Source of the DNA: Plotosus lineatus
Lineage: Eukaryota; Chordata; Actinopteri; Siluriformes; Plotosidae
Length of the DNA stretch: 64,000 nucleotides
Direction of reading: 5' to 3'
NCBI GenBank assembly: GCA_024760905.1
Contig: CM045731.1
Coordinates: 51,059,501-51,123,500 of the forward strand
Under the pieces are notes generated by a model. It was given only the letters and a program-made list of their open reading frames with translations. It was not told the origin of the DNA and ran no database searches. This document shows, one piece after another, positions 1,216 to 45,648 of this stretch (within the stretch, counting starts at the first letter, position 1; each line of letters begins with the position of its first letter). A program made the translations under genes and the position numbers.

Positions 1216-1799
1216 GTCTAAAGACAATAAGTTTGAAATTCTCAAAATTCTACATTGTGAGATAAGAACTAGTGTGATATTACAATAAGCCCAACAAGCT
1301 TGTGCTGTGTACTTTTTTTTTTGGCTTGGCAGAGGTTTGCACTCTCCAAAGTACCTCCCTAGTTTTAAATAAAAATTGGTATTTTGTTTGGAAAATGGCT
1401 CAAGATCCCACTTGCTCATTACAATTATCCTGAACCATGCAGGGTCCATGCTGACAGAGTTAACCGTTTGGAACATCATGAAGTTTTGAGAACGTTAATG
1501 CCTTCAAACCAGATGTCAGGGGCACCCACATTCCCTGGGTTTCACCCACTTTTTCGAGTTCCTGCCCACTTTCCTCAGGCCCGGTCCTTAAGCCAGAGTC
1601 ATTGAAACCAGGAAACCAAAACATTATTTTGAAACCACATCGTGACTCATCACTCACACCTCCACACAGCCACTTGCTCATAGGGTTGGGATATTATCAA
1701 GAGAAGACTACTTGAGTAATGTATAAAATACTTGTACTGTGTCTTCAGATGACCAGAAGATTTATTCTTGGTGTACATGAGGTGTCAGGTGCATATCTG

Positions 1800-2060
1800 G
1801 ACTCTGGCAGTTGTATACGCTGAACTGGAAATCGCAGACCCTATAGAGGCCTGACATGCAAGTAATTCAAATCCAGGTTGAAGCACGCAGCCATCCACGA
1901 CTTGGAGCCTGTGGGAGCTGATTTGCCCAGTGGATGGAAGGATGATATAGGTTTGTCTCCCTGTCACAGAGAGCCAAGCCAATCATGGGCAGCTCTGGGC
2001 TCATCCATCCCTTTGAGGCTGTACGCTGCCTTGAATATGCATGGGCTCCAAAAGATATGG
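1800..2060 (+). repeat. Degraded SINE (family B)
   Basis: It keeps diagnostic phrases of the family seen best at 54208-54590, including a CCAATCATGGGCA core and the CAGCCATCCA segment, but is heavily diverged. No target duplication was found. Confidence 0.4.
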
Positions 2061-3300
2061 GCAGAAAGCGTTGTGTGTCTTGTAAGAAACTCGTGTTTTC
2101 TTTTGCCCATACCTGGTTCGGAGAGATTAACATTATTTTTACTCCGCTGTAGTCTCCTCAATCATCAGGAAGGATTCTTATATTAACATCACCATTTTTT
2201 TTCTCTTCACAGGCAAGGATGCGAGAACCCCACCCTCATTTGTTCTTCATTTTCAGTAATAGGTACCTCTATTTTCTGTACATGTTAACAAATAATCTAA
2301 ACAATCCATCTGCAAGCTGGAAGACTTCAAAGTACCAGGAAGTGGCCTTGTGTCTATTCTTATTATTGTCAAGGATTCATTAAACTCTTCGAACTCCTGA
2401 GATAAAAAAAATTAAAGTATTAATTTTTAAAATTAATTTACTAAAAATAATTCATGCAAATAATCAATCAGTTTACCTTTGCTTATTCAAAGTTGGGTTG
2501 TAGAGGCAACAGGCATAGACAGGAAACCAGGCATCATTCTCCCAACTGACACTCTGTAGCTCCTCCTGGGGGGTACTGAAACATTGCCAGAACTCCTTGG
2601 AGTATATTATTGTCTGGCTTGGGTCCCTGTTTGAGTTGAATGTACGCGATACACCTCGAAAGAAAAGCAACCAGGAGGCATCCTAATCAGATGCCTGAAC
2701 TAATTACACGGACTCCTTTTGATGCAGGTCTACTTCAAGCTCCTCACCCCATCCCTAAGACTGAGCAATTCATGCTAACAAATTATGCAACATTCTGTAA
2801 ATAATCATGAAAAGACTTCTCAAAAGGTAATTATTAAATTGTAGCTTTTCAACAGTTTTCCCCTCTCTAAATTTATTCACTAGTTTTACAAGACAGACAG
2901 CGTTCATACATCTAGTACTGGTATGAGACGTAGAATTGAGGTCATGGCTTAACACCTAAGAGATTGCAGTTCTTGTTTTTTTTTTTTCCCATTTAAGAAT
3001 AGCATGAGAAACAAAGATATTCAAGATCAAATTTCATTAGTCTATTTTCCTTCTTGGCGTTTAAGCATGTTTATCATTTCGATGTCAAAGTCAGTGAAAT
3101 AGTCAGACTTTCTTGAGAAAAAAGTGAAATCAATTTTAATATTTTACAATCTGTAATGTCTGGGAACATCATGTGCCTGAAACATCATGGCTAATGCGGA
3201 GTACACAAGCAACTCTGTAAAAAACAACAACAAAAAAAAACCCCCACAGAAAATAAAATTAATTAAAAAATTTAAACACAAACATGGTCACCAGCCATAG
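2061..3300. other. AT-rich intergenic DNA, nothing recognised
   Basis: Short frames of up to about 65 codons occur here with no recognisable domain, splice context or repeat signature. Several poly-A or poly-T runs are present (for example near 2978 and 3230). Confidence 0.5.
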
Positions 3301-3620
3301 CCATACGGCTAGGTACTGAATCAGGACTTTGCAAACTACCGTTCCCATCATACACTGTTTTTCAGTGAAATTAAATGTGTCTCTCACAGAGTAGCGAATG
3401 TGAGATTCAACAACTTTTTTTTTAAATGTTGATGAAAATCAGAGTTCGCTCCTGCCATTAGTGTCATTTTGCAAATTTTTGCAAACACCACCAACAGTCT
3501 TTGCAATGATTAACAACTCTTTCACCATTGTTTGGGAACATTTGGGACCTTTTGCAATCTCCTACTAAAAGACCAGATGAATATGAGGCAAATCTTGGAA
3601 TTGAACCATTCCTACTCCTA
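3300..3620 (+). repeat. Dispersed repeat, partner of 6790-7440
   Basis: Phrases such as GTCATTTTGCAAATTTTTGC, 'gggaacatttg' and 'gaggcaaatcttggaat' have counterparts in the same order at 7240-7440. The pair looks like two diverged copies of one unnamed element. No ends were defined. Confidence 0.35.
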
Positions 3621-3826
3621 TAAAAATACCCAACAACCCCTTCTGGGATGCTGGTGATCCTGATCCTTCTGCTTTCTGAATCCTGTGGTTTGTCCTGGTG
3701 TGCTGATCCTGGCTGGAGTTCTCACCTTGAAAGCCCTTCCTTCTTGCTGATGAAGATCTATTATGTACCCAGATGTGCATTAACAGACTGTGAACATGAC
3801 TTTTCACTGCTGGTGATATTAACTCT

Positions 3827-4078
3827 TTTTCTTTTCCTTTCTCTTTCTGCTTTTCCCTTCAGGGGTCACCACAGTGAATCATCTGCCTCCATCTCACCCT
3901 ATCCCCTGCATCTTCTACTCTTACTCCAACTACCTTCATGTCCTCCTTCGCCACATCCATAAATCTTCTCTTTGGTCTTCCTCTAGGTCTTCTGCCTGGT
4001 AGTTCCAACCTCAGCATCCTACTACCAATATATTCACTATCCCTCCTCTGTACATGTCCAAACCATCTCACTCTAGCA
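3827..4078 (-). mobile_element. RTE-like LINE, 5'-truncated 3' end (copy a)
   Basis: The minus strand encodes the last 70 or so residues of the reverse-transcriptase polyprotein. It has the FGHVQRRD and GRPKRRFMD motifs and the terminal CGDP that also end the copies at 22.2-24.0, 29.5-45.3 and 56.1-56.8 kb. A perfect 14-bp target duplication, GTGATATTAACTCT, lies at 3813-3826 and 4079-4092, so this is a real truncated retrotransposition event. A frame reads through most of it but it cannot code for an active enzyme. Confidence 0.85.
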
Positions 4079-29480: not shown

Positions 29481-29495
29481 TGTTGGGGCGTGTCT

Positions 29496-31992
29496 TTTTT
29501 TCGGTTGTTCCCCTTAGGGGTCGCCACAGCGAATCATCTGCCTCCATCTCACCCTATCCTCTGCATCTTCTCTTACACCAACTACCTTCATGTCCTCCTT
29601 CACCACATCCATAAATCTCTTTGGTCTTCCTCTAAGCCTTCTGTCTGGTAGTTCAAACCTCCAGCATCCTGCTATCAATATTCACTATCCCTCCTCTGTA
29701 CATGTCCAAACCATCTCAATCTAGCCTCTCTGACTTTGTCTCCAAACATCTTACATGTGCTGTTCCTCTGATGTACTCATTCCTGATCCTATCCATCCTC
29801 GTTACTCCCAAAGAGAACCTCAGCATTTTCAGCTCTGCTTCCTGTCTTTTCCTCAGTGCCACTGTTTCTAAACCATACAACATCGCTGGCCTCAACACCG
29901 TCTTGTATGCTTTTCCTTTCATTCCTACCAATACCTTCCTATCACACATCACACTGGACACTTTTCTCCAACCATTTCAACCTGCCTGCACACACTTCTT
30001 CACCTCTTTTCCACACTCCCCACTGCTCTGGACTGTTGAGCAGAAGTACTTAAAATCCTCCACCTTCTTTATCTCTGCTTCCTGTGACCTCACCGTTCCT
30101 TTTGTGTCCTTTTTGTTCACACACATGTATTCTGACTTACTGAGGCTAACCTTCATTTCTTTTCATCCAGGGCATACCTCCATCTTTCTAGATTTTCCTG
30201 CACTTGTTCTCTGCTCTCACTACAGATCACAATGTCATCTGCAAACATCATAGTCCATGGAGATTCTTGTCTAACCTCGTCTGTCAGCCTGTCCATCACC
30301 ATAGCAAACAAGAAGGGGCTCAGAGCTGACCCTTAATGCAGTCCCACCTCCACCTTGAACTCTTCTGGCACGCCAACAGCACACCTCACCACTGTCTTAC
30401 ATCTCTCATACATGTCCTGCACCACTCTAACATACTTCTTTGCCACTCCAGACTTCCTCATGCAATACCACAGTTCCTCTCTTGGCACCCTGTCATATGC
30501 TTTCTCCAGATCCAGAAAGGTGCAATGCAACTCCCTGAGACCATCTCTGTACTTCTCTATTAACATCCTCAAAGCAACCACTGCATCTGTGGTGCTCTTT
30601 CTAGGCATGAAGCAAAACTGATGTTCACAAATGCTGACCTCTGCCCTTAGTCTAGCTTCAACTATTCTTTCCCATACCTTTATTGTATGGCTCATCAATT
30701 TTATCCCTCTGTAGTTGCCCCAACTCTGCACGTCTCCCTTGTTTTTAAAAATGGGCACCAGCACACTTCGCCTCCATTCCTTCGGCATCCTCTTACTCTA
30801 AGACCTTGTTGAATGTTCTTGTCAGAAAGTCTACTGCTCCCTCTCCTAGACATTTCCATACCTCCACCGGTATGTCATCATGACGAACTGCCTTTCCACT
30901 CTTCATCCTTTTCAATGCCCTCCTCACTTCACCCTTACTAATCTTTGCTACTTCCTGGTCCTCATCGGTCACCTCTTCTACTCTTTGTTCTCTCTCATTT
31001 TCCTCATTCATCAGCTCTTCAAAGTATTCTCTCCATGTTCTCAGCACACTTCTGTAATCAGTCAATACATTTCCCTCTCTGTCCTTAATCACTAACTTGT
31101 TGCATGTCCATCTCTATTTCTCTGCTGTGCCAACCTGTATAAATCATTTTCTCCCTGCTTACTGTCCAAACTTGCATACAAGTCATCATATGCCCTCTGT
31201 TTGGCCTTTGACACCCCTATGTTCACCTGACACTGTGTCTCCCTGTACTCCTGTTTACTCTCTTCAGTCATCTCAATGTCCCACTTCTTAGCTAACTTCT
31301 TCCTTTGTACACACTCCTGCACTTCCTCATTCCACCACCAAGTCTCATTTTTTTTCCAGAGGACACACCAAGTATTCTCCTACCTGTCTCCCTGATCACA
31401 TTAGCTGTAGTTGTCCAGTCATCTTGAAGCACTTCCTGACCACCCAAAGCCTGTTTCAACTCCTCCTTGAAGACAACATGACACTCTTCCTTTTTTAGCT
31501 TCCACCACTTTGTCTTCTGCTGTGCCTTTTCCTTCTTCACCGTGCTCACCATCAGCATCATCCTGGACACCACCATCCTATGCTGTCTGGCAACATTCTC
31601 ACCTACTACTACTTTGCAGTCACTGACTTCCTTCAAATTACATCGCCAACACAAGATATAGTCTACCTGTGTGCTTCTACCTCCGCTTTTATAAGTCACC
31701 CTATGCTCGTGTCTCTTCTGGAAGAAAGTATTCACCACAGCCATTTCCATCCATTTTGCAAAATCTCTCAACATATGTCCTTCTGAGTTCCTGTCCTGGA
31801 TACCAAACCTGCTCATCACTTCCTTGTCCCTTCTGTTGCCTGCACCAACATGTCCATTGAAGTCTGCACCAATGACCACTCTTTCACCTGTTGGGGTACT
31901 CTGCATCACTTCATCTAACTCACTCCAGAATCTCCTTTTCTTCTAGTTCACATCCTGCCTATGGGGCATAAGCACTAACAACATTGAACATC
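29496..31992 (-). mobile_element. RTE-like LINE (copy c), 3' part, split by a provirus
   Basis: The minus strand encodes part of the endonuclease (VVIGADFNGHVGAG, TQVDYILCW) and the reverse transcriptase (KSGKAVRHDDIPVEVWK, VLVPIFKNKGDVQSWGNYRG). It ends with the family tail at about 29500. Stops and frameshifts separate the blocks. The 5' part is at 44784-45283. A 15-bp target duplication, TGTTGGGG(C/T)GTGTCT, flanks the whole at 29481-29495 and 45284-45298. Confidence 0.88.
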
Positions 31993-32485
31993 TGTTAGGT
32001 TCTAAATAAACACAGACATCATAAACACGCATATGCAATAAGAAGGACACAGAGAATTAAGTTCTTTTATATACTCATATGAGGAGAGCGATCAAAACAA
32101 CTCTAATCGCTCTGAACTAAGTCTGATTGAGAACCTCTATTTATTTCTTTAGGGGAGTTCTTGGTTACATATCGTTCCTGGCACTAAGGGAATGGGGAAG
32201 AAAAAACACATGAGCCAGTAACGTGAAAGTTAACGTAAGTTTATCTTAAAGATCACACAAGTATTTTAGCAAACAAACATGATTAACACAGATAGAACAT
32301 TCTTTCTACTAGACGCAGTCTTCTTGCAGTCAATAGGTCATCCTGATGTGCAGGCGCACCCAAACGGCTCTGCTATGGTTTGATAGTTTTCTGTAAAAAC
32401 ACTAGTAAAGCAGTTTCTATGCATTGTTCATATTGGTCAGATACAAGGCTGTGCTGTGTTAACTATATGTACAATTACTTCAACA
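31993..32485 (-). repeat. LTR A (3' LTR of copy 2)
   Basis: 493 bp, with TG...CA ends on both strands. It is adjacent to a purine-rich tract at 32486-32500 (minus strand AGGAGGGAAA), the usual plus-strand primer. It differs from LTR D by roughly twenty substitutions and a few indels by eye. Confidence 0.9.
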
Positions 32486-33853
32486 TTTCCCTCCTGTTTA
32501 CCATAGCTCAGACGAAAAACATCATTCATGACCACTTCATTTAAGATTTTCAGTTAAAAACTCATTAGTTTCATCTGAACAGTTTGCACAGGGATGTCAT
32601 CTTCCTTATAGTTTTCACAATCTGGAAACAAGTCAGACACACTATTCAAAGTTTCATACTCATTTTTATCAACATTATCACATTCATGATATTGCATATT
32701 ATCTTTCAAAAGTGGATACATCTGTATCTCTTCTGCCTTAAAACCCAGGTCAGTGACTATGAGTCGATTCAACATAGAACATAAACATGGAATACAACAA
32801 CAACAACAGTGTAAAAAGCTGCAAAAACTACACAGATATTAATACAAATAATACAAGGGTACTATATTTTCCCAGATACATTGAACCATGAATCCTACAT
32901 AGAGGTATCTGCCCCAGAATGTTCTTTCATCTTAAGAGATTTCAGGCCCTCTATTGCTGGTGTTAAACTTCCATCTGATGCAGTGTTGTTTGGAATAAAA
33001 GTACAACATTGTTCCCCGAACTTGCGCAAAAAAATGCGATTTTGAAGTCATCAGTGACATTGCTGCTAATTGACTATATACTGCTTTAAAACCTGTCTGT
33101 GTCCAATTGCCTAGTTTTTAAACATTATAGTAGATGTAATTTATTCTATCCTCATTTTTATTAATAGTAAACCACCAACAGATGGTAGATTTGAACCCAG
33201 CTGCGACTTGATCTACCAGTTTATATTCATCAGGAACCCCTCTCGCTGCGACTTTAAGGAATATAGATTTGTTTCTCTGGTCCTGTAAGCGGATATACAC
33301 TATCCCAAGTCATACAACGATTAGTCAGAACCATGTTATTCATTAAATCTATCAGACATTTTGGAGTAATTTCAGCTGGAATTATTCATAAAATTGGTCT
33401 TAGCCCCATGCATACTATACAGTCTTGTTTAGCCGCTGGCTTCTTCTGCCATCAACAACCAGTTGTTTCCTTGTTTAGATGCTCCAGCGGTTACCAAGAA
33501 TCAATCACCAGTTTCCATCTTCTCTTGTAGCACGTTCAGTCCATTTCTTTCTTTAGCAGGCGAGAGTTGTGCTGAAGTGTTTGCAAGCAGGGTGTTATTT
33601 TTTGCACAATATGAAGATTCCCAGACGATAGTCATAACCTGAGGTCCAGCACCATACAGAGACTGTCTTTCACTTTGTAATATTCATTCTTTCATTACTG
33701 ATTTTCACTTGGAAGTTTCTGTCTGTGCAGTTATCAACTTGTAATCTTGCTCTCCATTGGTTGGCATTATGGTCTGAGTAACTCTTCCAGTCTTGCCCTG
33801 TATGGTCCGCTATTAGTCCATTCCATCTGTTATACCAACCAAGGAGGGAATAC

Positions 33854-34334
33854 TGTTGAAGTAATTGTCCATATAGTTAACACAGCTTAGCCTTGTATAT
33901 GACAAATATGAACATGCATAGAAACTGCTTTACTCGTGTCTTTGCAGAAATCCATCAAACCATAGCAGAGCCATTTGGGTGCGCCTGCACCATATCAGCA
34001 TGACCTATTGACCGCAAGAAGACTGCGTCTACTAGAAAGAACGTTCTGTCCGTGTTAATTATGTTTGCTAAAACACTTGTGTGACCTATAAGATAAACTT
34101 TCACGTTACTGGCTCATGTGTTTTTTCTTCCCCATTCCCTTCGTGCCAGGAACGATATGTAACCAGGAACTCCCCTAAAGAAATAAATAGAGGTTTTCGA
34201 TCAGACTTAGTTCAGAGCGATTAGAACTGGTTTGATCGCTCTCCTCATATGAGTATATAAAAGAACTTAATTCTCTGTGTCCTTCTTATTGCACATGCGT
34301 GTTTATGATGTCTGTGTTTATTTAGAACCTGACA
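33854..34334 (+). repeat. LTR B (5' LTR of copy 1)
   Basis: 481 bp, from TGTTGAAGTAATTG to GAACCTGACA. A TATA-like TATATAAAAG lies at about 34254-34263, consistent with the retroviral promoter. A six-base gap separates it from the primer site. Confidence 0.92.
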
Positions 34335-34340
34335 TTTAAT

Positions 34341-34357
34341 TGGTCCTTCGAGCCGGA
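34341..34357 (+). other. Primer binding site, tRNA-Tyr type
   Basis: TGGTCCTTCGAGCCGGA is complementary to the 3' 17 bases (with CCA) of vertebrate tRNA-Tyr. All 17 bases match as I recall that tRNA. Confidence 0.8.
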
Positions 34358-35113
34358 TACCAAGATACCTGACGATTCCTGCTGACGTGGTGGACACTGG
34401 TGAAATCCTTGGCCAAGGCAACTCAAAAGTGAGTTGATATCAGACCCCTTTTTGGGGCCGGGAGGATCGACCCGTCCGCAGGGATCCAAGGGTTGATGGT
34501 AATCCGAGGAGGAGACACAGGGTGAGTTAACTTCTTTTAAAAGCAGAAGTGAATGAGCTCAGTAACAAAGGTTACATAAAATAGATGAGAAGTTGCAACA
34601 AGAGGTTATGGATGCATAAAATGGATGTAAAGTGGTTCGAAAGCTAAAAGACAGTGAAATGCCGCATAAAAAAATAAAATAACATAAAAATATGAAAAAG
34701 AAGAAAACAGGGAGGGTGGACTCCCCTGTTGTTGAGAGACAGTTAAATTCCGTATAAGGGAGGGTGGACTCCCCTGTCTAGGTAGCAAAACCCTGAGTAT
34801 TCTAGACAATGGCAGGTATATAAAAGAAGGGAGCGTGGATTCCCCAAAGTCTGAGAAGATGAAAGATGAAGAAAACGGCCGTGGGTGAATGAATGTGTGT
34901 GTGAACGGAGGAAATAATCCTTGATTAAATCCTCATATAATACTGCGGGATCAATACAACGAGTTCCTGTGGATGCAGAGGCAAGAATCCTCCGCCTGAA
35001 AAGGTAGAAGCTTGAGGGTTACCACGGGAATAGTTTATTGTTGTCCTGCAGTAAGATAAACCAGTGTTAGGACACCCTAGGTGCAACAAACCACTGGTCC
35101 AAATTGGGTTAAA

Positions 35114-35975
35114 ATGGGGAGTAAAAACAGTAAACCTAGAGATAAGTTAGAATGTGGAGATGTAGAAAGCTGTAGAAAAACAGGTGCCTAATGGGAATAA
35201 ATATTTAGACTTATGGGTTAGCAAGTATGGATTCAACGGACAAGTAAATGTAAAAAGACTAATAGAATTATAAGGAGCTATTAGGCAGAACTGTAAAAAT
35301 AATGAAGAAAAAAAATTGAAAAAACAAGGATGGGAAGAAGCAGAAGAGTGGATTAAAATGACAAATAAAAGGCGTGAAGGAGAAAAACAAGCAAAAGAAA
35401 AGAAAAAATGAAGAAGAGAAGAAACAAAAATAAAGAGAAAGAAAAAGCAAGTGAAAAAGAAAAAAAAAGACAAAGAGAGGAAAAAGAGAAAACTAAGGAG
35501 AAAAATAAAGAAGATATTGAAGAATATGAAGTACAGTACCATAGAGAAGAGGATGATGAGACACGTAGTGGAAGAAGGTTCAGAATCAAATATGAGAAAG
35601 CATTCCGATTACACAGTGGAATAGTGGACAACAGGCCAACAGGGGGCCAAAACATTTGCAATACACCTGAAAGGTGCAGCACAAAAAAAAGTAAGATACT
35701 GGATTGAAAAACATCTCTGGAACCATGGCAGAATGTAATTGGACGATTATGCCGACAAGGCAATGCATGGAGATAAAGTAACCAAAAAGAACAAAATGAA
35801 AAGAGTAGAAACCTTCTTCGAGGACTGGGATAACCCTGAAGTATATTATCAGGGGACTAGAGGCAGAGGAAGAGGAGGATTTAACACACCTGGAGGGAAT
35901 GAATGCTGGGCATGTGGCAAGAAAGGACATTACAGCAGAGATTGTCAGGGGCAGAAACAGAACCAGAGTTCAGCG
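35114..35975 (+). pseudogene. gag remains of copy 1
   Basis: The frame opens with MGSKNSK, fitting an N-myristoylation signal, but closes after about 26 codons. A Lys/Glu-rich low-complexity part follows in another frame (35408-35707). The 3' part (35739-35978) has one zinc knuckle of the CX2CX4HX4C type (CWACGKKGHYSRDC), preceded by an RGRGRGGF segment. The reading frame is broken, so no complete Gag is made. Confidence 0.8.
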
Positions 35976-36129
35976 TGATTATGTGCACCTAATAAGAATG
36001 AAATGAGGTGTAAACGCCCAATTAAAAACAGCCCTAAAATAACCACCTCCCCTGACCAAACAGAATCTGCCATACCAAATAAAGATCCAGTCTCAAAGGA
36101 AGAAATTGACCTAAAATATAGAAGAAATA

Positions 36130-36762
36130 TTGGCATTAGACAGCTGCAGACCGGAAATAAGGCTAATAGTAAATGGAAAAGAGATGACATTTCTCTGTGA
36201 CACAGGGGCATGCAGAACCACCTGCAATGAGTCAATACCAGGGCTAAGAAATGGTGATGAAACTGTGGTGGTTAGAACCGCAAACGGCCTGCACAGTAAG
36301 ATATATATTTCTGAACCAGTGTGGATCAGTGATCCAGAGGGAACAACGTGTCACATGTCAATATTAAATATGCCTGAATGTCCAGTGAATTTATTAGGCA
36401 GAAATGGAATGCTGCAATTGGGCATAGGGCTGATTCCATCAGCCACACAAGGATATATGCTGGTAAAGAGAAGAAAAGAACGAGAGGAAAAAGGCCTGAT
36501 GGTCCTACAAGGACATGGAGAACTGTTTTATTATTCCCTAATGAGAATAGGAAAGTCATTAACAGTTCCAGGAACTGACACCATGAATCCAGATGAACTA
36601 CACATAACAATGTGGTTTCGACTTTGTCCGGATCTCGACCCAGATTATGAGGGGGCATTACAAAAGGTCACGCCAACCAGAATAACACTCACCTATATGT
36701 ATGCTGATGAAACAGGAAATGTAGTGATAGCAGCAATTCTGCCGAAACAACTGGTGCCATGA
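36130..36762 (+). pseudogene. Retroviral protease region of copy 1
   Basis: An open 210-codon frame contains FLCDTGACRTT, with the aspartic-protease DTGA triad at about residues 28-31, and a downstream NLLGRNGM that fits the conserved LLGRD-type turn. The frame stays open past the protease and enters the start of pol. This is the longest intact viral frame in the block. Confidence 0.75.
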
Positions 36763-37084
36763 CAGAGACAGTGGACATCACCACATGTGTCCCTATATAA
36801 ACACAGTACCGTGAGCAGGAAGAAATTAGGAAACATGGTAAAAGAAGGAGAAAGTGCTGAGGACTGGAAAGAAACACAACCGAATTTGTGGTACAGTGTA
36901 AGAACGAGACTCTGGAAAAAGACAATACAATGGACAACCCAAGTTAATATGGGAGTCCACTTACAGAAAAGATATAATTGACTAAATGTCCTGACGCAAA
37001 GAGAAGAGGACATGCTCAATGAAGGTCCGGAAGGATTGTGGTCCAAGGGATCCGCAGATGTGGGACTAATAGAAGATTAAATGG

Positions 37085-37705
37085 GCAGCAATTTTGAGTC
37101 ATGGGAAAACCCATGTCTCAACAGGAGGGATGGTGGGACAGGTAGACCAGAGATATACTGCCTATGGCTTTAAACTATACTAAAAAAAAAATAAATAAAA
37201 ATAAAAAATCTGTAGAGCATGTCTAATCTGCGCAAAATACAATGCTCAAGAGGACATGAGACTTCTGAAAAAAATCACTGTGCCTATCACCCAAAGTGCA
37301 GGACTTGTAGAAAGAATGAATGGCACTATAAAAAAAAAAAACAGACTTCCCCATTTTAAAAATAATTGGGAACCAGATGATGAAACAGATCTGGCAGACT
37401 ACATGAAAAAAATATTTGAGAAACAAAGAAAAACAGAAACTGATCACCAGATTGATGTCTCCCAATAAGAAATTCCCTTGATGAAACCTGGAGAATTGGA
37501 TCCTGATCAGAAGCATAAAAAGAAAGTACTGGTATTCAGCTAAGTGGGAAGGCCCATACCAAGTCCTTTTGACAACACCAACTGCTATTAAACTGGCGGA
37601 AAGAAACACCTGGATACACCTGACGCACTGCAAGCGAGTCATCAGAGTGCTCGAGACAACCGGGACTGAGACTGAGTCTGGTAATAGTGTGGACTCGGAT
37701 CAATA
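37085..37705 (+). pseudogene. pol remnant of copy 1: integrase ends only
   Basis: The N-terminal zinc-binding part (SHGKTHVST-like, then a CLIC pair near 37220) is followed almost at once by GLVERMNGT, which holds the last catalytic Glu. The central part of the integrase, with its first two catalytic Asp, is absent. The C-terminal SH3-like segment ([10 protein letters not shown]) follows to about 37705. Confidence 0.75.
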
Positions 37706-37749
37706 GGACTGGGTAGACACGAAAGCCAGTGAAGAAATCAACAAGTAAA

Positions 37750-39640
37750 AAGTCCTTTAGTGCCTCAGAACACCTGATAGACCCTGCAGTAGAAGAGGTA
37801 ACGTCCAAAGGAAGAAATTAAAATTGTGGAAAGGAATAATTTTACCCCTGACCCTGGTGAGGGTCCAAGGAATTGATGTCGGAACAGGAGCAATGAGTTG
37901 AATAAGACTGACTCCTATAACTGCTGGGTATAATGGAGCACACACGCCTCAGTGATACGTATACTCCAATACCACGACAAGGGTGCTGATACAGAAACTT
38001 ACCAGTGGAGTGGAGGCCCTGGGCTGCAACTGTGTGACAAACAATATTGGAATTTCCTCCTTGGCTGGTATAACAGATGGAATGGACTAATAGCAGAACA
38101 TATAGGGCAAGACTGGAAGAGCTACTCAGACCATAATGCCAACCAATGGAGAGCAAGATTACAAGTTGATAACTGCACAGACAGAAACTTCCAAGTGAAA
38201 ATCAGTAATGAAAGAATGAATATTACAAAGTGTCAGACAGTCTCTGTATGGTGCTGGACCTCAGGTTATGACTATCGTCTGGGAAGCTTCATATTGTGCA
38301 AAAAATAACACCCTGCTTGCAAACACTTCAGCACAACTCTCACCTGCTAAAGAAATGGACTGAACGTGCTACAAGAGAAGATGAAAACTGATGATTGATT
38401 CTTGGTAACCGCTGGAGCATCTAAACAAGGAAACAACTGGTTGTTGATGGCAGAAGAAGCCAGCGGCTAAACAAGACTGTATAGTATGCATGGGACCAAG
38501 ACCAAATTTATGAATAATTCCAGTGAAATTACTCCAAAATGTCTGATAGATTTAATGAATAACAGGGTTCAGACTAATAGATGTATGACTTGGGATAGTG
38601 TATATCCGCTTACAGGACCAGAAAAACACAAACCTATATTCTCTAAAGTCGCAGCGAGAGGGGATTTTTCATGCATTAATATGACTGCCAAAGGTCAGAT
38701 ACGAGGAAATTTAGTTGATAGGTTGCCATATAATAAAACTGGTGTATGTGCTATTGTTACTTTCAGTATTAATGTACCCTACAACAGCAGAACACATATT
38801 AAAGGAAGTGAATAGTGTATTACCCGGTACCAGGAAAACACGTCATAAAAGAGACACCACATGGCAAGGAACGTGACCCCACTTATATAGATGCTATAGG
38901 AGTTCCACGAGGGGTTCCTGATGAATATAAACTGATAGATCAAGTCGCAGCTGGGTTCAAATCTACCATCTGTTGGTGGTTTACTATTAATAAAAATGAG
39001 GATAGAACAAATTACATCTACTATAATGTTTAAAAACTAGGCAATTGGACACAGACGGGTTTTAAAAAGCAGTATATTCCAAAATCCACTGCACGAGACA
39101 TGTTATTAGCAGAGAAAGGAGGTGTATGCGCAAGTTCGGGGAACAATGTTGTACTTTTATTCCAAACAACACTGCATCGGATGGAAGTCTAACACTAGCA
39201 ATAGAAATCCTGAAATCTCTTAATAAAAAGATGAAAGAACATTCTGGGGCAGATACCTCTATGTAGGATTCATGGTTCAATGTATCTGGGAAAATATAGT
39301 ACCCTTGTATTATTTGTATTAATATCTGTGTAGTTTTTGCAGCTTTTTACACTGTTGTTGTTGTTGTATTCCATGTTTATGTTCTATGTTGAATCGACTC
39401 ATAGTCACTGACCTGGGTTTTAAGGCAGAAGAGATACAGATGTATCCACTTTTGAAAGATCATATGCAATATAATGAATGTGATAATGTTGATGAAAAGG
39501 AGTATGAAACTTTGAATAGTGTGTCTGACTTGTTTCCAGATTGTGAAAACTATAAGGAAGATGACATCCCTGTGCAAACTGTTCAGATGAAACTAATGAG
39601 TTTTTAACTGAAAATCTTAAATGAAGTGGTCATGAATGAT
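37750..39640 (+). pseudogene. env region of copy 1
   Basis: Broken frames lie between integrase and the 3' LTR. They include a Trp-rich surface segment (37952-38308) with several N-X-S/T sites. A hydrophobic membrane segment follows at about 39300-39385. Last is a 73-codon acidic tail frame (39386-39607). The tail frame is also open in copy 2 (32554-32775, minus). The assignment to env rests on position and these features. Confidence 0.6.
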
Positions 39641-39673
39641 GTTTTTCGTCTGAGCTATGGTAAACGAGGGAAA

Positions 39674-39899
39674 TGTTGAAGTAATTGTACATATAGTTAA
39701 CACAGCACAGCCTTGTATCTGACCAACATAGGAACTCCCCCAAAGAAATAAATAGAGGTTCTCGATCAGACTTAGTTCAGAGCGATTCGAACTGGTTTGA
39801 TCGCTCTCCTCATATGAGTATATAAAAGAACCCAATTCTTTGTGTCCTTCTTATTGCATATGCATGTTTATGATGTCTGTGTTTATTTAGAACCTGACA
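39674..39899 (+). repeat. LTR C (3' LTR of copy 1), internally deleted
   Basis: Both LTR ends are kept, but about 250 bp are missing between 'tctgaccaacata' and GGAACTCCCCC relative to LTR B. The deleted part is upstream of the TATA-like site. Confidence 0.88.
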
Positions 39900-40199
39900 A
39901 ATACCAATATTGTTTGTCACACAGTTGCAGCCCAGGGCCTCCACTCCACTGGTAAGTTTCTGTATCAGCACCCTTGTCGTGGTATTGGAGTATACGTATC
40001 ACTGAGGCGTGTGTGCTCCATTATACCCAGCAGTTATAGGAGTCAGTCTTATTCAACTCATTGCTCCTGTTCCGACATCAATTCCTTGGACCCTCACCAG
40101 GGTCAGGGGTAAAATTATTCCTTTCCACAATTTTAATTTCTTCCTTTGGACGTTACCTCTTCTACTGCAGGGTCTATCAGGTGTTCTGAGGCACTAAAG

Positions 40200-42092
40200 G
40201 ACTTTTTACTTGTTGATTTCTTCACTGGCTTTCGTGTCTACCCAGTCCTATTGATCCGAGTCCACACTATTACCAGACTCAGTCTCAGTCCCGGTTGCCT
40301 CAAGCACTCTGATGACTCGCTTGCAGTGCGTCAGGTGTATCCAGGTGTTTCTTTCCACTAGTTTGATAGCCGTTGGTGTTGTCAAGAAGACTTGGTATGG
40401 GCCTTCCCACTTAGCTGAATACCAGTACTTTCTTTTTATGCTTCTGATCAGGATCCAATTCTCCAGGTTTCATCAAGGGAATTTCTTATTGGGAGACATC
40501 AATCTGGTGATCAGTTTCTGTTTTTCTTTGTTTCTCAAATATTTTTCTCAAGTAGTCTGCCAGATCTGTTTCATCATCTGGTTCCCAATTATTTTTAAAA
40601 TGGGGCAGTTTTAATAGTGCCATTCATTCTTTCTACAATTCCTGCACTTTGTGGGTGATAAGCACAGTGGTTTTTTTTTCAGAAGTCTCATGTTCTCTTG
40701 CGCATTGTATTTTGCGCAGATTAGACATGCTCTACAGATTTTTTTTTTTTTAGTATAGTTTAAAGCCATAGGCAGTATATCTCTGGTCTACCTGTCCCAC
40801 CATCCCTCCTGTTGAGGCATGGGTTTTCCCATGGCTCAAAATTGCTGCCCATTTAAATAAGTTCTTTAGTAAACTTGGTTTGTTGTTGGGACAGGTATAG
40901 AGTCCATTTTTAATCTGTGCTCCTTTGCCTATCCAGGATGCTTTTTCACTTTCTGGGCTTTGTTCCTGCATGTCCTGTAAAACATCTCTGGTTACTTCAG
41001 TGTCATCTGTCATTGTGAATACTTCACAGCAGCTTCTTTTGCTTTTCTGTCTGCAAAGGCATCATCGTTTTATTTGTGTACAGCGCATTTGCATACTGCT
41101 ACTTATTTTGGTAATTGTATTGCTGCTAGTAACTCTTTCAGTCGCTGTGCATGGGTGACTGGTTTGCTAGTTGAGGTTATCATGCCTCTGTTGTGCCAAT
41201 ATTGTGCAAATGAGTGTACGGTGGCATAATTCGGTATCCATGTTCTGCAGTAATTTGTCAGGCCTCGGAAGAACATCATTTGTTTCGTTGTTACTGGTTT
41301 TGAAACTTGTAGCACTGCTGTTTTTCTATCTTCCACAATGGTTCTGCCTCCTGCACTCAAATTATGTCCCAAGTATTTCTCTGTTGTTCTACACATCTGC
41401 AGTTTATCTTTACTGACCTCATGCCCTTCAGCTGTCAGATGTCTGATAAGTTTTATGGTGTCTTTTCTGCAGGGTTTTTTCTTCTGATGAGGCCAGAAGG
41501 ACCTCATGCACATACGTCAATACTTGACTTCCTCCTGGGGGTTCGAATTTAGCCATACTTGCGACCATGATTTGTGAGTAAATTGTTGGGCTCTCCCAGT
41601 ACCCTTGCGGCAGTCTGGTATAAGTGTATCTTTTTCCTTCATAGGTGAATGCGAACCAGAACTGACTATTCTTATCAAGCGGCACTGAGAAAAATGCGTT
41701 TCTTATATCCACAACTGTAAAGTAAGTTGCATCTTGTCTGAGGCTGTTTAAAAGGGTATGTGGATCTGCCACACAAGGGGTTCTCTGAATTACTGCATCA
41801 TTGACGGCTTGTAAATCTTGTACCATTCTCCACTCTACAGATGCTGCTGCTTTCTTAACTGGAAATATGGGGTGTTTCATGGTGAGTCCTCGCACTCCAC
41901 CAATACGCCTGCTTTCAGCAACGCTTCGATTACTGGTTTAATTCCTTCTTTGGCATCTGGTTTAAGGGGATACTGTCTGATACGGGATCGGTATTCTGTT
42001 TTGGGGCATATCTGGACTGGTTTTATATCTTTTATTAGTCCCACATCTGCGGGTCCCTTGGACCACAATCCTTCCGGAACTTCATTGAGCAT
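40200..42092 (-). pseudogene. pol remnant of copy 2
   Basis: Minus-strand reverse transcriptase includes WRMVQDLQAVNDAV, YFTVVDIRNAFFSVPL, YTRLPQGYWESPT and a YVHE at the place of the catalytic YXDD motif. RNase H is mostly gone. The integrase zinc-binding region (40750-41013) and the C-terminal part remain, with the same core deletion as copy 1. Confidence 0.8.
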
Positions 42093-42539
42093 GTCCTCTT
42101 CTCTTTGCGTCAGGACATTTAGTCAATTATATCTTTTCTGTAAGTGGACTCCCATATTAACTTGGGTTGTCCATTGTATTGTTTTTTTCCAGAGTCCCGT
42201 TCTTACACTGTACCACAAATTCGGTTTTATTTCTTTCCAGTCCTCAGCACTTTCTCCTTCTTTTACCATGTTTCCTAATTTCTTACTTTCACGGTACTTC
42301 ATTTTCCACTTGTGTTAGAACATTTAGTCAGTTTTTAGATGAGTTCCTTGGCAGAATCACGCTGCTGTCCAGGTTGCTGTAGCTGACCGAGGTGAATGAT
42401 TTCTTCTTTAGTTCTCTGAGCTTCTGGTGATGGGTTTGGTTGGTTTTGCGGGAGGGGAATGATATGGAGGGAGCTGTTCCTCTTTTTCATTTGTCAAATC
42501 AGAATTATGTTTGTTATGCTGGCAATTTATAGGTGGTGT

Positions 42540-43165
42540 ATTTTTACAGGGTATATATAGTCATGCTAAACTCTAGTTTCGTTTCTTTTCTGGACAATTT
42601 CTACTGTAATGTCCTTTCTTGCCACATGCCCAGCATTCATTCCATCCTGGTCTGTTAAATCCTCCTCTTCCTCTTCCTCTAGTCCCCTGATAATATACTT
42701 CAGGGTCATCACAGTCCTCGAAGGTTTCTACTCTTTTCATTTTGTTCTTTTTGGTTACTTTCTCTGCATGCATTGCCTTGTCTGCATAATCTTCCAATTG
42801 CAGTCTGCCATGGTTCCAGACATGTTTTTCAATCCAGTATCTTACTCTTTTTTTTGTGCTGCACCTTTCAGGTGTATTGCAAATGTTTGGCCCCCTGTTG
42901 TCCTGTTGTCCACTATTCTATTGTGTAATCGGAATGCTTTCCAATCTTCTGCTTCTTCCCATCCTTGTTTTTTTTTCTATTTTTACAGTTTTGTCTAATA
43001 GCTCATTGTAATTCTATTAGTCTTTTTACATTTAACTGTCCATTGAATCCATACTTGTTAACCCATAAATCTAAATATTTATTTCTGTCAGGCGCTTGTT
43101 TTTCTACTGCTTTCCAATCTCCACATTCTAATTTATCTCTAGGTTTACTGTTTTTACCCCCATTT
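42540..43165 (-). pseudogene. gag remains of copy 2
   Basis: The zinc knuckle CWACGKKGHYSRNC is encoded at 42573-42797. The start region near 43165 has lost a base relative to copy 1, changing the frame after the first codons. Confidence 0.75.
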
Positions 43166-43896
43166 CTTTTTTTTTTTTCTTTTTTTTTTTTTTGTTAACC
43201 CAATTTAGACCAGTGGTTTATTGCACCTAGGGTGTCCTAACACTGGTTTCCTACGGGACAACGATTAATTATTTCTGTGGTATTCCTCAAGCTTCTACCT
43301 TTTCAGGCGGAGGATTCTTGCCTCTGCATCCACAAAAACTCGTTGTATTAATCCCGCAGTATTATATGAGGATTTAATCAAGGATTATTTCCTCCATTCA
43401 CACACACATTCATTCACCCACAGCCGTTTTCTTCATCTTTCTTTTTCTCAGACTTTGGGGAGTCTGCGCTCCCTTCTTTTATATACCTGCCATTGTCTGG
43501 AATACTCAGGGTTTTGCTACCTAGACAGGGGAGTCCACCCTCCCTGTTTTCTTCTTTTTCATATTTTTATTTTATTTTTGTTATTTTATTTATGTTTTAC
43601 GTGGAATTTAACTGTCTTTTAGCTTTACATCCATTTTATGTATCCATACCCTCTTGTTGCAATTTCTCATCTATTTTATGTAACCTTTGTTACTGAGCTC
43701 ATTCACTTCTGCTTTTAAAAGAAGTTAACTCACCCTGTGTCTCCTCCTCGGATTACCGTCAACCCTTGGATCCCTGCGGACGGGTCGATCCTCCCGGCCC
43801 CCAAAGGGGTCTAATGTCAACTCACTTTTGAGTTGCCTTGGCCAAGGATTTCACCAGTGTCCACCACGTCAGCAGGAATCGTCAGCTATCTTGGTA

Positions 43897-43913
43897 TCCA
43901 GCTCAAAGGACCA
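43897..43913 (-). other. Primer binding site of copy 2, decayed tRNA-Tyr type
   Basis: The minus strand reads TGGTCCTTTGAGCTGGA. It differs from copy 1 at two bases, both C to T within former CpG pairs. Confidence 0.78.
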
Positions 43914-43919
43914 AATAAA

Positions 43920-44778
43920 TGTCAGGTTCTAAATAAACACCGACATCATAAACACGCATATACAATAAGAAGGACACAGAGAATTAAGTTCTTTTATATA
44001 CTCACATGAGCAGAGCGATCAAACCAACTCTAATCGCTCTGAACTAAGTCTGATCGAGAACCTCTATTTATTTCTTTAGGGGAGTTCCTGGTTACATATT
44101 GTTCCTGGCACTAAGGGAATGGGGAAGAAAAAACACACGAGCCAGTAACATGAAAGTTTATCTTAACGATCACACAAGTGTTTTAACAAACATGATTAAC
44201 ACAGATAGAACATTCTTTCTAGTAGGGGCAGTGGTGGTCTCGTGGTATAGGGTGCTGGATCGCTGATCCAAAGGTTGGGGGTTCGAGTCCCACTCTCCAC
44301 AGGGTTGTCACTGTCCCCCCCCAGTGCGGCTAACTGGGTTATCAAAGGCGGGCCATGTCTCTCACTGTCTATGGTGAGAGGCATGTAAAAGAACCATTGC
44401 TGACTTTCATAAAGAGTAGGCTGCAAAGCTGTCAGCGTGTTTCTGTCCCTTGCTAAAAGCGTTGTGACAGGAAGGGCATCTGACATCATAACCTCTGCCA
44501 AATCAAAAAAACGTGTGAATCAAATGATTCGCTGTGGCTACTCCCGAGTAAAAGGGAAAAAGCCGAAAGGAAGACAGAAAGACAGAACATTCTTTCTAGT
44601 AGATGCAGTCTTCTTGCGGTCAATAGGTCATCCTGATATAGTGTAGGTGCACCGAAACGGCTCTGCTATGGTTTGCTAGTTTTCTGCAAAAACACTAGTA
44701 AAGCAGTTTCTATGCATTGTTCATATTGGTCATATACAAGGCTGAGCTGTGTTAACTATATGTAGAATTACTTCAACA
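43920..44778 (-). repeat. LTR D (5' LTR of copy 2) with a SINE inside
   Basis: TG...CA ends match LTR A. The 859-bp length is explained by the SINE at 44226-44583 plus its 19-bp target duplication. Confidence 0.9.
44226..44583 (+). mobile_element. SINE family A inserted in LTR D
   Basis: It has a tRNA-like head (GGGGCAGTGGTGGTCTCGTG, B box GGTTCGAGTCC). Its 3' end, 'gattcgctgtggctactccc' to 'gccgaaaggaagacag', matches the 3' end of the RTE-like LINEs in this window. The target duplication AGAACATTCTTTCTAGTAG is at 44207-44225 and 44584-44602. Confidence 0.9.
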
Positions 44779-44783
44779 ACATC

Positions 44784-45283
44784 ACACCTTCAATTTCTAA
44801 CTTGAGACTCATCACTCTGTCTGACACTCTTTTCACTTCTAGAACATTCCTGACTAACCCCTGCTTCAAGATGACTTCTACGTCATTTCTCTTCCTATCC
44901 ACATCATGAGAAAACAGCTTAAATCCTGCTCCTAAGCTTCTAGCCTTGCCTCCGTTCCACCTGGTCTCCTGAACACACAGTATGTCCACCTTCCTCCTCT
45001 GCATCATGTCAGTCTCCTCTCTCCAGCTTTTTCTGTTTTTGTTCCATTTAAAGTCCCTACCCTCAGTCCTAGACTCATGCTTTTCCTCTTCTCTCTCTGC
45101 CTACGGACATGCCAACCGCCGCTCCTTCTTCGACCAACAGTCGTCCAGTTTCCACCTGCACCCTGTCGGTTAACAGCACTGATGGCGGTCGTTGTAAACC
45201 CGGGTCTCGACCGATCCGGTTTGGAAGTCACACTGATGGAGCCGCATGGTATATTTGGATTAGATTACTGTGGCTCAGCAATG
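44784..45283 (-). mobile_element. RTE-like LINE (copy c), 5' part
   Basis: It carries the start of the endonuclease domain (LRVGTLNG, then RKVDILCVQETRWNGGKARS) and continues directly into the sequence at 31992 once the provirus is removed. The two parts together make about 3.0 kb, close to full length for this family. Confidence 0.85.
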
Positions 45284-45315
45284 TGTTGGGGTGTGTCTAA
45301 ATTACAATTTTAGAT

Positions 45316-45648
45316 CTTTCTATCTTTTTTCCTTTCGGCTTCTTCCCTTTTTCAGGGGTTTCCACATGTTTGATTTGGTATACGTTTTTACGTTGGATGC
45401 CCTTCCTGACACAGCCCTTTAGCAAGGGACAGAAACATGCTGACGCCTATGCAGTACTCTTTACGAAAGTCAGCAATGGTTCTTTTACATACCTCTCACC
45501 ATAGACAGTGAGAGACATGGCTGGCCTTTGATAACCCAGTTAGCTGCACTGAGGGGACAGTGACAACCTTGCGGAGAGTGGGACTCGAACCCCCAACCTT
45601 AGGACCAGCAATCCAGTGCCCTTTACCACCAGGCCACCACTGCCCAGT
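45316..45648 (-). mobile_element. SINE family A, reverse orientation
   Basis: Same head and LINE-like tail as 44226-44583. Near-identical flanks TTACAATT(T/G)TAGAT at 45302-45315 and 45649-45662 are the target duplication. It landed just outside LINE copy c. Confidence 0.88.

What the first reader, a model, noticed from the sequence alone, without database searches (positions are those of the whole stretch)
29481..45298. Nested insertion block with a readable order of events
Four transposition events can be separated by their target duplications: LINE copy c (TGTTGGGGYGTGTCT), provirus copy 2 in the LINE (ACATC), provirus copy 1 in copy 2's env (AATAC), and a SINE in copy 2's LTR (AGAACATTCTTTCTAGTAG). 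Removing them in order rejoins each host element cleanly. The whole 15.8 kb between the two genes is thus explained, and provirus copy 2 must be older than copy 1. The same retroviral family inserting into itself in opposite orientation is unusual.
Basis: seen in the sequence. Interest (0 to 1): 0.75.

Follow-up and report, generated by a model that had tools for sequence, protein, structure and literature searches.

The report
Self-nested retroviruses with exchanged arms
A retrovirus fossil sits back-to-front inside another of its own family in a fish-like genome, as first reported, and parts of the two facing copies appear to have been overwritten by one another afterwards, which upsets the usual way of dating such fossils.

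Summary
All four target duplications are where stated: LINE 29481-45298; provirus copy 2 (minus) 31993-44778; provirus copy 1 (plus) 33854-39899 inside copy 2's env; a SINE in copy 2's 5' LTR. The LINE rejoins in reading frame; copy 1's own env shows where copy 2's env was cut. Order: LINE, copy 2, copy 1; the SINE some time after copy 2. Same-family nesting is known from plants.

The copies fall in different gag clades (informative sites 17:4 against grouping them). Yet they are identical over 394 nt of env ending 4 nt short of the nesting junction, where 16 other copies differ from copy 1 by 5.3-8.2%, and differ by 5/498 over the end of env plus U3. Two U3 variants are shared by the two 3' LTRs but absent from both 5' mates and from the other copies readable there (14 of 14, 10 of 10). 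Best reading: gene conversion between the inverted arms after nesting, so LTR divergence does not recover the known order. Mosaic copies are common in this family, so some likeness may predate nesting. A known process in a readable setting.

The parts
29481..29495 (.). LINE target duplication, left copy
   Evidence: the 39 other LINE copies listed (40 of 1137 candidates scored) start matching at query 184-200 = window 29483-29499
29496..31992 (-). LINE, 3' part (RT ORF and an ORF read from memory as endonuclease), up to and including left ACATC
   Evidence: RVT_1 for the RT ORF; no Pfam match for the other
31988..31992 (.). Target duplication ACATC of provirus copy 2, left
31993..32485 (-). 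Copy 2 3' LTR (493 nt); its U3 end is part of tract 2
32486..33848 (-). Copy 2 env, 3' part (left of the nested copy)
33849..33853 (.). Target duplication AATAC of provirus copy 1, left
33854..34334 (+). Copy 1 5' LTR (481 nt)
34335..39673 (+). Copy 1 internal region: leader/gag, protease ORF (36130-36762), pol gap at 37076/37077, env
37657..38050 (+). Tract 1 in copy 1: 0 of 394 differences to copy 2 (copy 2 side about 39904-40297)
39231..39728 (+). Tract 2 in copy 1: env end plus U3, 5 of 498 differences to copy 2 (copy 2 side about 32431-32930)
39674..39899 (+). Copy 1 3' LTR (226 nt; about 255 nt missing at 39728/39729)
39900..39904 (.). Target duplication AATAC of copy 1, right
39905..43919 (-). 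Copy 2 env 5' part, pol (RT piece 41428-41895), gag, leader
43920..44778 (-). Copy 2 5' LTR, interrupted by a SINE
44207..44602 (+). SINE with target duplications 44207-44225 and 44584-44602; 3' tail like the LINE's
44779..44783 (.). Target duplication ACATC of copy 2, right
44784..45283 (-). LINE, remaining 5' part
45284..45298 (.). LINE target duplication, right copy
45316..45648 (-). Second SINE, outside the block, tRNA-Ser-like head

Best explanation
A LINE inserted; an endogenous retrovirus with an MLV-type RT (copy 2) integrated into it on the minus strand; a second member of the same family but of another gag clade (copy 1) integrated on the plus strand into copy 2's env; a SINE entered copy 2's 5' LTR at some time after copy 2. 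These steps are shown by the target duplications. The self-nesting made a cis inverted repeat. Afterwards the facing env/U3 arms exchanged sequence by gene conversion at least twice: tract 1 (copy-1 37657-38050), ending at the nesting junction, and tract 2 (about 39231-39728), ending at the gap in copy 1's 3' LTR. Conversion is inferred; its direction is unknown. The gap may be the scar of a break repaired from the opposite arm (speculative).
For: Duplications flush with element ends. Clade conflict among the same four proviruses (copies 1 and 2, C17:11205k, C20:68k): informative sites for grouping copies 1+2 versus the two alternatives are 4:17:1 in gag, 5:0:0 in the part of tract 1 that all four hold and 10:1:0 in tract 2. 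Gag searches agree: copy 2 is the 6th row (85%, gaps counted) from copy 1, copy 1 the 12th row (85%) from copy 2. Tract 1: 0/394 against 45/1312 in the other env windows used, Fisher 1.4e-5; tract 2 with U3: 5/498, p 0.0035 (tract limits were chosen on the same data). Sixteen other copies readable over at least 70% of tract 1 differ from copy 1 by 5.3-8.2%, so it is not a conserved stretch. Longest run of concordant polymorphic sites: copies 1-2 have the longest of 241 pairs in env5 (135 sites, next 52; permutation p 0.0004) and of 192 pairs in env3 (112, next 64; p 0.0006). Differences go from 0 in 394 nt to 6 in 68 nt across the junction. U3 sites 34 and 46: both 3' LTRs share A and C; both 5' mates and the other copies readable there (14 of 14 and 10 of 10; 27 of 28 loci had some LTR match) have T and A, so these changes arose after integration.
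Against: Mosaic copies are common: one other pair in env5 and at least six other pairs in env3 reach a permutation p at or below that of copies 1-2 (their runs are shorter), and the C17 provirus is 95% to copy 1 in gag but 85-86% in LTR. Copies 1 and 2 also lean together outside the tracts (8:3:0 after tract 1; shared private sites 38608, 38650, 38946, 38981) and differ there by 3.4%, less than the mate LTRs' 5.4% (p 0.045), so part of the env likeness may be older exchange or shared viral ancestry. In the pro-RT piece three other copies match copy 1 better than copy 2 does. Without CpG-context sites, env is not significantly closer than copy 2's mates (p 0.23). Only two U3 sites carry the after-integration argument. 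That tract ends match homology ends was noticed after the fact. No reads were available to exclude errors of the assembly.
Confidence: 0.74

Rival explanations
1. Recombination between viruses before integration, or conversion with third copies: copies 1 and 2 share env segments for reasons that have nothing to do with the nesting.
For: Mosaic members are common; env outside the tracts also leans towards grouping the two copies.
Against: LTR mates start identical, so U3 variants present in both 3' LTRs and in neither 5' mate postdate integration. Tract divergence (0/394 and 5/498) is below mate-LTR divergence 38/705, p 4e-8 and 2e-5, which a shared pre-integration segment should not be. A tract ending within about 20 nt of the insertion site would be coincidence (last tying variants 38031 and 38032).
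Confidence: 0.2
2. The inverted arrangement is an assembly artefact or one inverted duplication, not two integrations.
For: Long inverted arms of up to 98-99% in places.
Against: Two different 5-bp duplications, each flush with LTR ends; the copies differ by large gaps, gag clade and LTR length; the window lies inside a contig of 73.95 Mb.
Confidence: 0.03
3. Copy 1 descends directly from copy 2's own transcript, reinserted into its parent.
For: Near identity in parts of env.
Against: Gag clades differ, including a 48-nt block that copy 1 shares with the C17 provirus and that copy 2 and the C20 provirus lack.
Confidence: 0.02

Closest known systems
Autoinsertion (nesting into the same family) of plant LTR retrotransposons, PMC6911290 (passages read)
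   Same: Same-family nested pairs are described as frequent in some families; 5-bp duplications dominate; the nested element is taken as the younger.
   Different: Plant Ty3/gypsy and Ty1/copia elements there. The orientation counts seen (four same, two reverse) are for one family nested in another. Exchange within a nested pair was not seen in the passages.
LTR divergence contradicting nesting order, PMC7251063 (passages read): 1042 of 4126 plant pairs
   Same: The nested element is not less diverged between its LTRs than its host (14/226 against 24/479; the difference is small).
   Different: The passages name gene conversion as a possible contribution; here candidate tracts run between the two elements of the pair.
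Non-allelic gene conversion among human LTR elements, PMC4921805 (passages read)
   Same: Ectopic conversion between retroviral copies, more often within a chromosome; maximum tracts of 14-450 bp there, 394 and about 500 nt here.
   Different: Here internal env sequence is involved and the two partners form one inverted repeat.

Membership tests
Endogenous retrovirus (MLV-type RT) | Paired LTRs with TG..CA ends and short target duplication | tested here: met
Endogenous retrovirus (MLV-type RT) | Retroviral protease and reverse transcriptase | tested here: met
   RVP 2.3e-9 (copy 1) and RVT_1 3.4e-16 (copy 2); best solved RT matches for copy 2 include MMLV RT
Endogenous retrovirus (MLV-type RT) | Primer binding site after the 5' LTR | tested here: inconclusive
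   TGGTCCTTCGAGCCGG lies 6 nt after the LTR; reading it as complementary to tRNA-Tyr is from memory
Endogenous retrovirus (MLV-type RT) | Env gene | tested here: inconclusive
   Two short ORFs from the broken env region had no Pfam match; 'env' rests on its place between pol and the 3' LTR
Endogenous retrovirus (MLV-type RT) | Placement in a genus by tree | not tested
   no tree made
Ectopic gene conversion | Bounded tract of identity against diverged background | tested here: met
Ectopic gene conversion | Conflict with the tree of flanking sequence | tested here: met
   (site counts, no tree)
Ectopic gene conversion | Exchange after both copies were in place | tested here: inconclusive
   two U3 sites and the tract end at the junction favour it; no population or species data
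Ectopic gene conversion | Donor and recipient identified | tested here: inconclusive
   one search gives no clear direction
LINE (RTE type, from memory) with partner SINE | RT domain and target duplication of non-LTR type | tested here: met
   RVT_1, 15-bp duplication; the clade name was not tested
LINE (RTE type, from memory) with partner SINE | SINE shares the LINE's 3' tail | tested here: met
   SINE in the LTR: local score 29.0, 500 shuffles at most 21.5; second SINE only 19.5, within the shuffles; tRNA-Ser head found by ARAGORN in the second SINE only

The most novel reading that the evidence does not exclude
Self-nesting in opposite orientation routinely turns a pair of proviruses into a cis inverted repeat whose near arms keep converting each other, so that nested elements look as old as or older than their hosts and lose LTR sequence through break repair from the opposite arm; this would be one general cause of LTR-clock failures in nested pairs.
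Probability: 0.2. Interest if true: 0.55.

Novelty: new member of a known kind. Interest (0 to 1): 0.36.

Why it matters
Nested elements give an independent order of events, so they are used to check the LTR clock. This block shows, base by base, a plausible way in which that clock fails: sequence passing between the nested and the host element after nesting. The junction inside env and the four LTRs act as built-in controls for what happened before and after. The processes themselves are known.

Tried and rejected
Rejected: single inverted duplication or net inversion (each provirus keeps matching duplications on both sides). Rejected: copy 1 as offspring of copy 2. Considered: low divergence of env because env is conserved; rejected for tract 1 since 16 other copies differ there by 5.3-8.2%. 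Considered: CpG decay explaining high LTR divergence; without CpG-context sites env against copy-1 mates is still p 0.005, against copy-2 mates 0.23. The first global alignments misaligned the gag-pro block and were replaced; the block copy 1 35983-36804 against copy 2 42299-42556 shows no clear homology and was dropped from counts. Dropped too: positions 39060-39130 (poor alignment); and 38051-38054, 38659-38908 and 39064-39230 (of which 39131-39230 is 6/94) from the 45/1312.

An error of mine, mended: loci of minus-strand places are held unreversed, and searched one strand only, so they silently left out the minus-strand loci (12 of 27 env loci; only 17 of 28 loci gave an LTR match). repeat the comparisons with both strands. 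One search used plus-strand loci only; it was not repeated.

A trend that near arms are more alike than the far gag arms is visible but was not tested. Three paper searches on gene conversion and endogenous retroviruses (20 and 27 with nesting and inversion) listed no nested inverted provirus pair by title; only listings and starts of abstracts were seen. One search (tRNA-Tyr primer, fish) gave nothing used.
Full report
What was checked. The window is DNA without Ns and lies at 51059501-51123500 of contig C4 of a 1.33 Gb, 30-contig assembly; that the host is a fish is a guess from memory of its repeats. Self-comparison shows one large inverted arrangement between 31993 and 44778. Reading the edges gives: LINE duplication 29481-29495 / 45284-45298; copy 2 LTRs 31993-32485 and 43920-44778 inside ACATC duplications; copy 1 LTRs 33854-34334 and 39674-39899 inside AATAC duplications; SINE between 19-bp duplications 44207-44225 and 44584-44602. 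The finding is confirmed at its coordinates. The LINE's 3' edge is supported from outside: the 39 other LINE copies listed (40 of 1137 candidates scored) begin matching within window 29483-29499.

Empty sites. The LINE flanks joined with a single duplication read in frame across the junction, and both flanks match another LINE of this genome (L069, 84% and 90%). That second LINE is itself inserted in the env of another family provirus, with its own duplication (ACACCCAG[T/C]AGTTATAGGA, read by eye), and is interrupted by a further element within about 3 nt of the same LINE position (by eye). For copy 1 in copy 2, copy 1's own env serves as the empty site: copy 2's right flank maps up to 38054 and its left flank from 38052. 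Flanks inside env were not joined.

State of the proviruses. Copy 1 lacks about 1.17 kb of pol at 37076/37077 relative to copy 2 and about 255 nt inside its 3' LTR relative to its mate. Copy 1 holds stretches of 245 and 251 nt that copy 2 lacks. The blocks 35983-36804 (copy 1, with the protease) and 42299-42556 (copy 2) have no clear counterpart in each other. Which side lost or gained was not polarised in general; eight other loci begin matching copy 1 at exactly 37077 with 103 to 1112 nt of further held flank, which fits a loss in copy 1.

The unexpected part. If nothing happened after nesting, the two copies should differ from each other at least as much as the LTR mates of the younger one. 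They do not: env (copy-1 37077-39673, poorly aligned positions dropped) differs by 56/2245 (2.5%), copy 1's mates by 14/226 and copy 2's mates by 24/479; Fisher p 0.005 and 0.007, without CpG-context sites 0.005 and 0.23 (an earlier MAFFT alignment gave 15/226 and 26/479). Gag differs by 75/1285 (5.8%).

Genome-wide background. With env 37677-38251 as query, 40 of 158 candidates were scored; 12 other copies cover most of it at 89-96%, copy 2's right part is listed at 100% over 379 nt (one difference, rounded) and its left part at 96% over 200 nt. With 39228-39673, 40 of 204 candidates were scored; copy 2 is 99%, the other 39 rows 77-92%. With gag 34335-35052, 40 of 255 scored; four other copies (91-95%) beat copy 2 (85%, gaps counted). 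From copy 2's gag, 40 of 256 scored; ten other copies beat copy 1 (85%). By substitutions alone gag is closer: copies 1-2 34/658 (5.2%), copy 1 to the C17 provirus 28/715 (3.9%), copy 2 to the C20 provirus 35/716 (4.9%). In the 272-nt pro-RT piece (40 of 111 scored) three other copies beat copy 2 (96%).

Mosaic. Windows along env outside the tracts show 1.9-6.4% between copies 1 and 2, about the range of the nearest other copies (minimum 2.0-5.2%). In tract 1 (37657-38050) they show 0/394 against 5.3-8.2% to 16 other copies, and in 39231-39476 and 39477-39673 2/246 and 2/197 against minima of 4.9 and 5.7% to 9 and 8 other copies. Variants held by copies 1 and 2 and by no other copy readable there: 3 in tract 1, 8 in tract 2 up to 39673, but also 4 between 38608 and 38981. 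The next difference after tract 1, 38051, lies inside the target duplication, and differences resume at 38055, 38065, 38095 and so on. The last rare variants that tie the copies together are 38031 and 38032. So the tract ends where copy 2's homology ends at the nested element. Tract 2 continues into the U3 (1/55) and ends at the gap in copy 1's 3' LTR; beyond it the two 3' LTRs differ by 11/168.

Permutation test. Copies 1-2 have the longest concordant run of all 241 pairs in env5 (135 sites, next 52) and of all 192 pairs in env3 (112, next 64), p 0.0004 and 0.0006 in 5000 permutations each. One other pair in env5 and at least six in env3 score as low or lower in p with shorter runs (1000 permutations; the top six rows of each are printed). 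Mosaic copies are thus common in the family, by viral recombination or by conversion among dispersed copies.

Timing. At U3 positions 34 and 46 the two 3' LTRs carry A and C. Both 5' mates and the other copies with a letter there (14 of 14, 10 of 10) carry T and A. LTR mates are identical at integration (established retroviral biology), so these changes happened after integration in one copy and reached the other; chance parallel change at two such sites was put at about 6e-5 under an assumed 2.5% rate, a crude figure. In the retained U5-side part two columns support the mates rather than the arms (765, 766).

Same four proviruses throughout. Copies 1 and 2, the C17:11205k provirus (K) and the C20:68k provirus (M): sites for copies 1+2, for 1+K, for 1+M are 4:17:1 in gag; 5:0:0 in the part of tract 1 that K keeps; 8:3:0 after tract 1; 2:0:0 at 38909-39063; 1:1:1 at 39064-39230; 10:1:0 in tract 2. 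With four other pairs of outside copies, tract 1 gives 9-15:0:0 against 3-6:1-2:1-2 before it. Env as a whole therefore leans to grouping copies 1 and 2, which may be older conversion or shared viral env; the two tracts stand out on top of that.

Interpretation. The most likely history is nesting, then at least two conversions between the inverted arms, younger than both integrations. Direction could not be told. A break in copy 1's 3' LTR, repaired from copy 2's facing 3' LTR and closed by end joining, would explain tract 2 and the gap together; this is speculation. No absolute dates are given since no rate for this host was available.

Prior art. [quoted passage not shown] passages read. This case fits these and is graded a new member of a known kind.

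SINE and LINE. The 3' tail of the SINE in the LTR matches the LINE's 3' tail (score 29.0; 500 shuffles at most 21.5), the second SINE less so (19.5), which suggests that LINEs of this family moved the SINE. The LINE clade and SINE family are not named by any search.

Noticed in passing
L070, L071, L072 (G000 C20:2510780-2515950, parts): A provirus of this family with LTRs in opposite orientation at its two ends: LTR(+), gag, pol, then abruptly the start of the primer binding site and LTR(-). The arms match 82/82 and 412/417 (6 nt counted twice), break 9 nt into the primer binding site, and both outer ends are U3 ends flanked by the same ACATGT in a SINE. It looks like one integration of an aberrant DNA with two U3 ends. 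None of the ten papers listed held the term 'inverted LTR'.
   Followed up: partly
L069 920-6439: Reverse nesting: a LINE of the window's LINE family lies inside the env of another family provirus, with its own duplication.
   Followed up: yes
L069 about 1520-3990 and window 31988-31992: In L069 the LINE carries another LINE-like element (by its ORFs, from memory) within about 3 nt of the position where provirus copy 2 sits in the window's LINE. Chance or a shared weak spot; only these two copies were seen.
   Followed up: no
window 45316-45648: Second SINE copy with a tRNA-Ser(GCT)-like head and its own 14-bp duplication, 17 bp from the LINE's right duplication.
   Followed up: partly
L026, L027, L028 (C11:42318358, C9:1849385, C4:19684142): Three env copies on different contigs are cut at copy-1 position 37996-38001 and resume at 39197, as if from one internally deleted lineage.
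   Followed up: no
G000 C17, about 3.3-7.7 Mb: Many gag hits of a related subgroup cluster on this part of contig C17.
   Followed up: no
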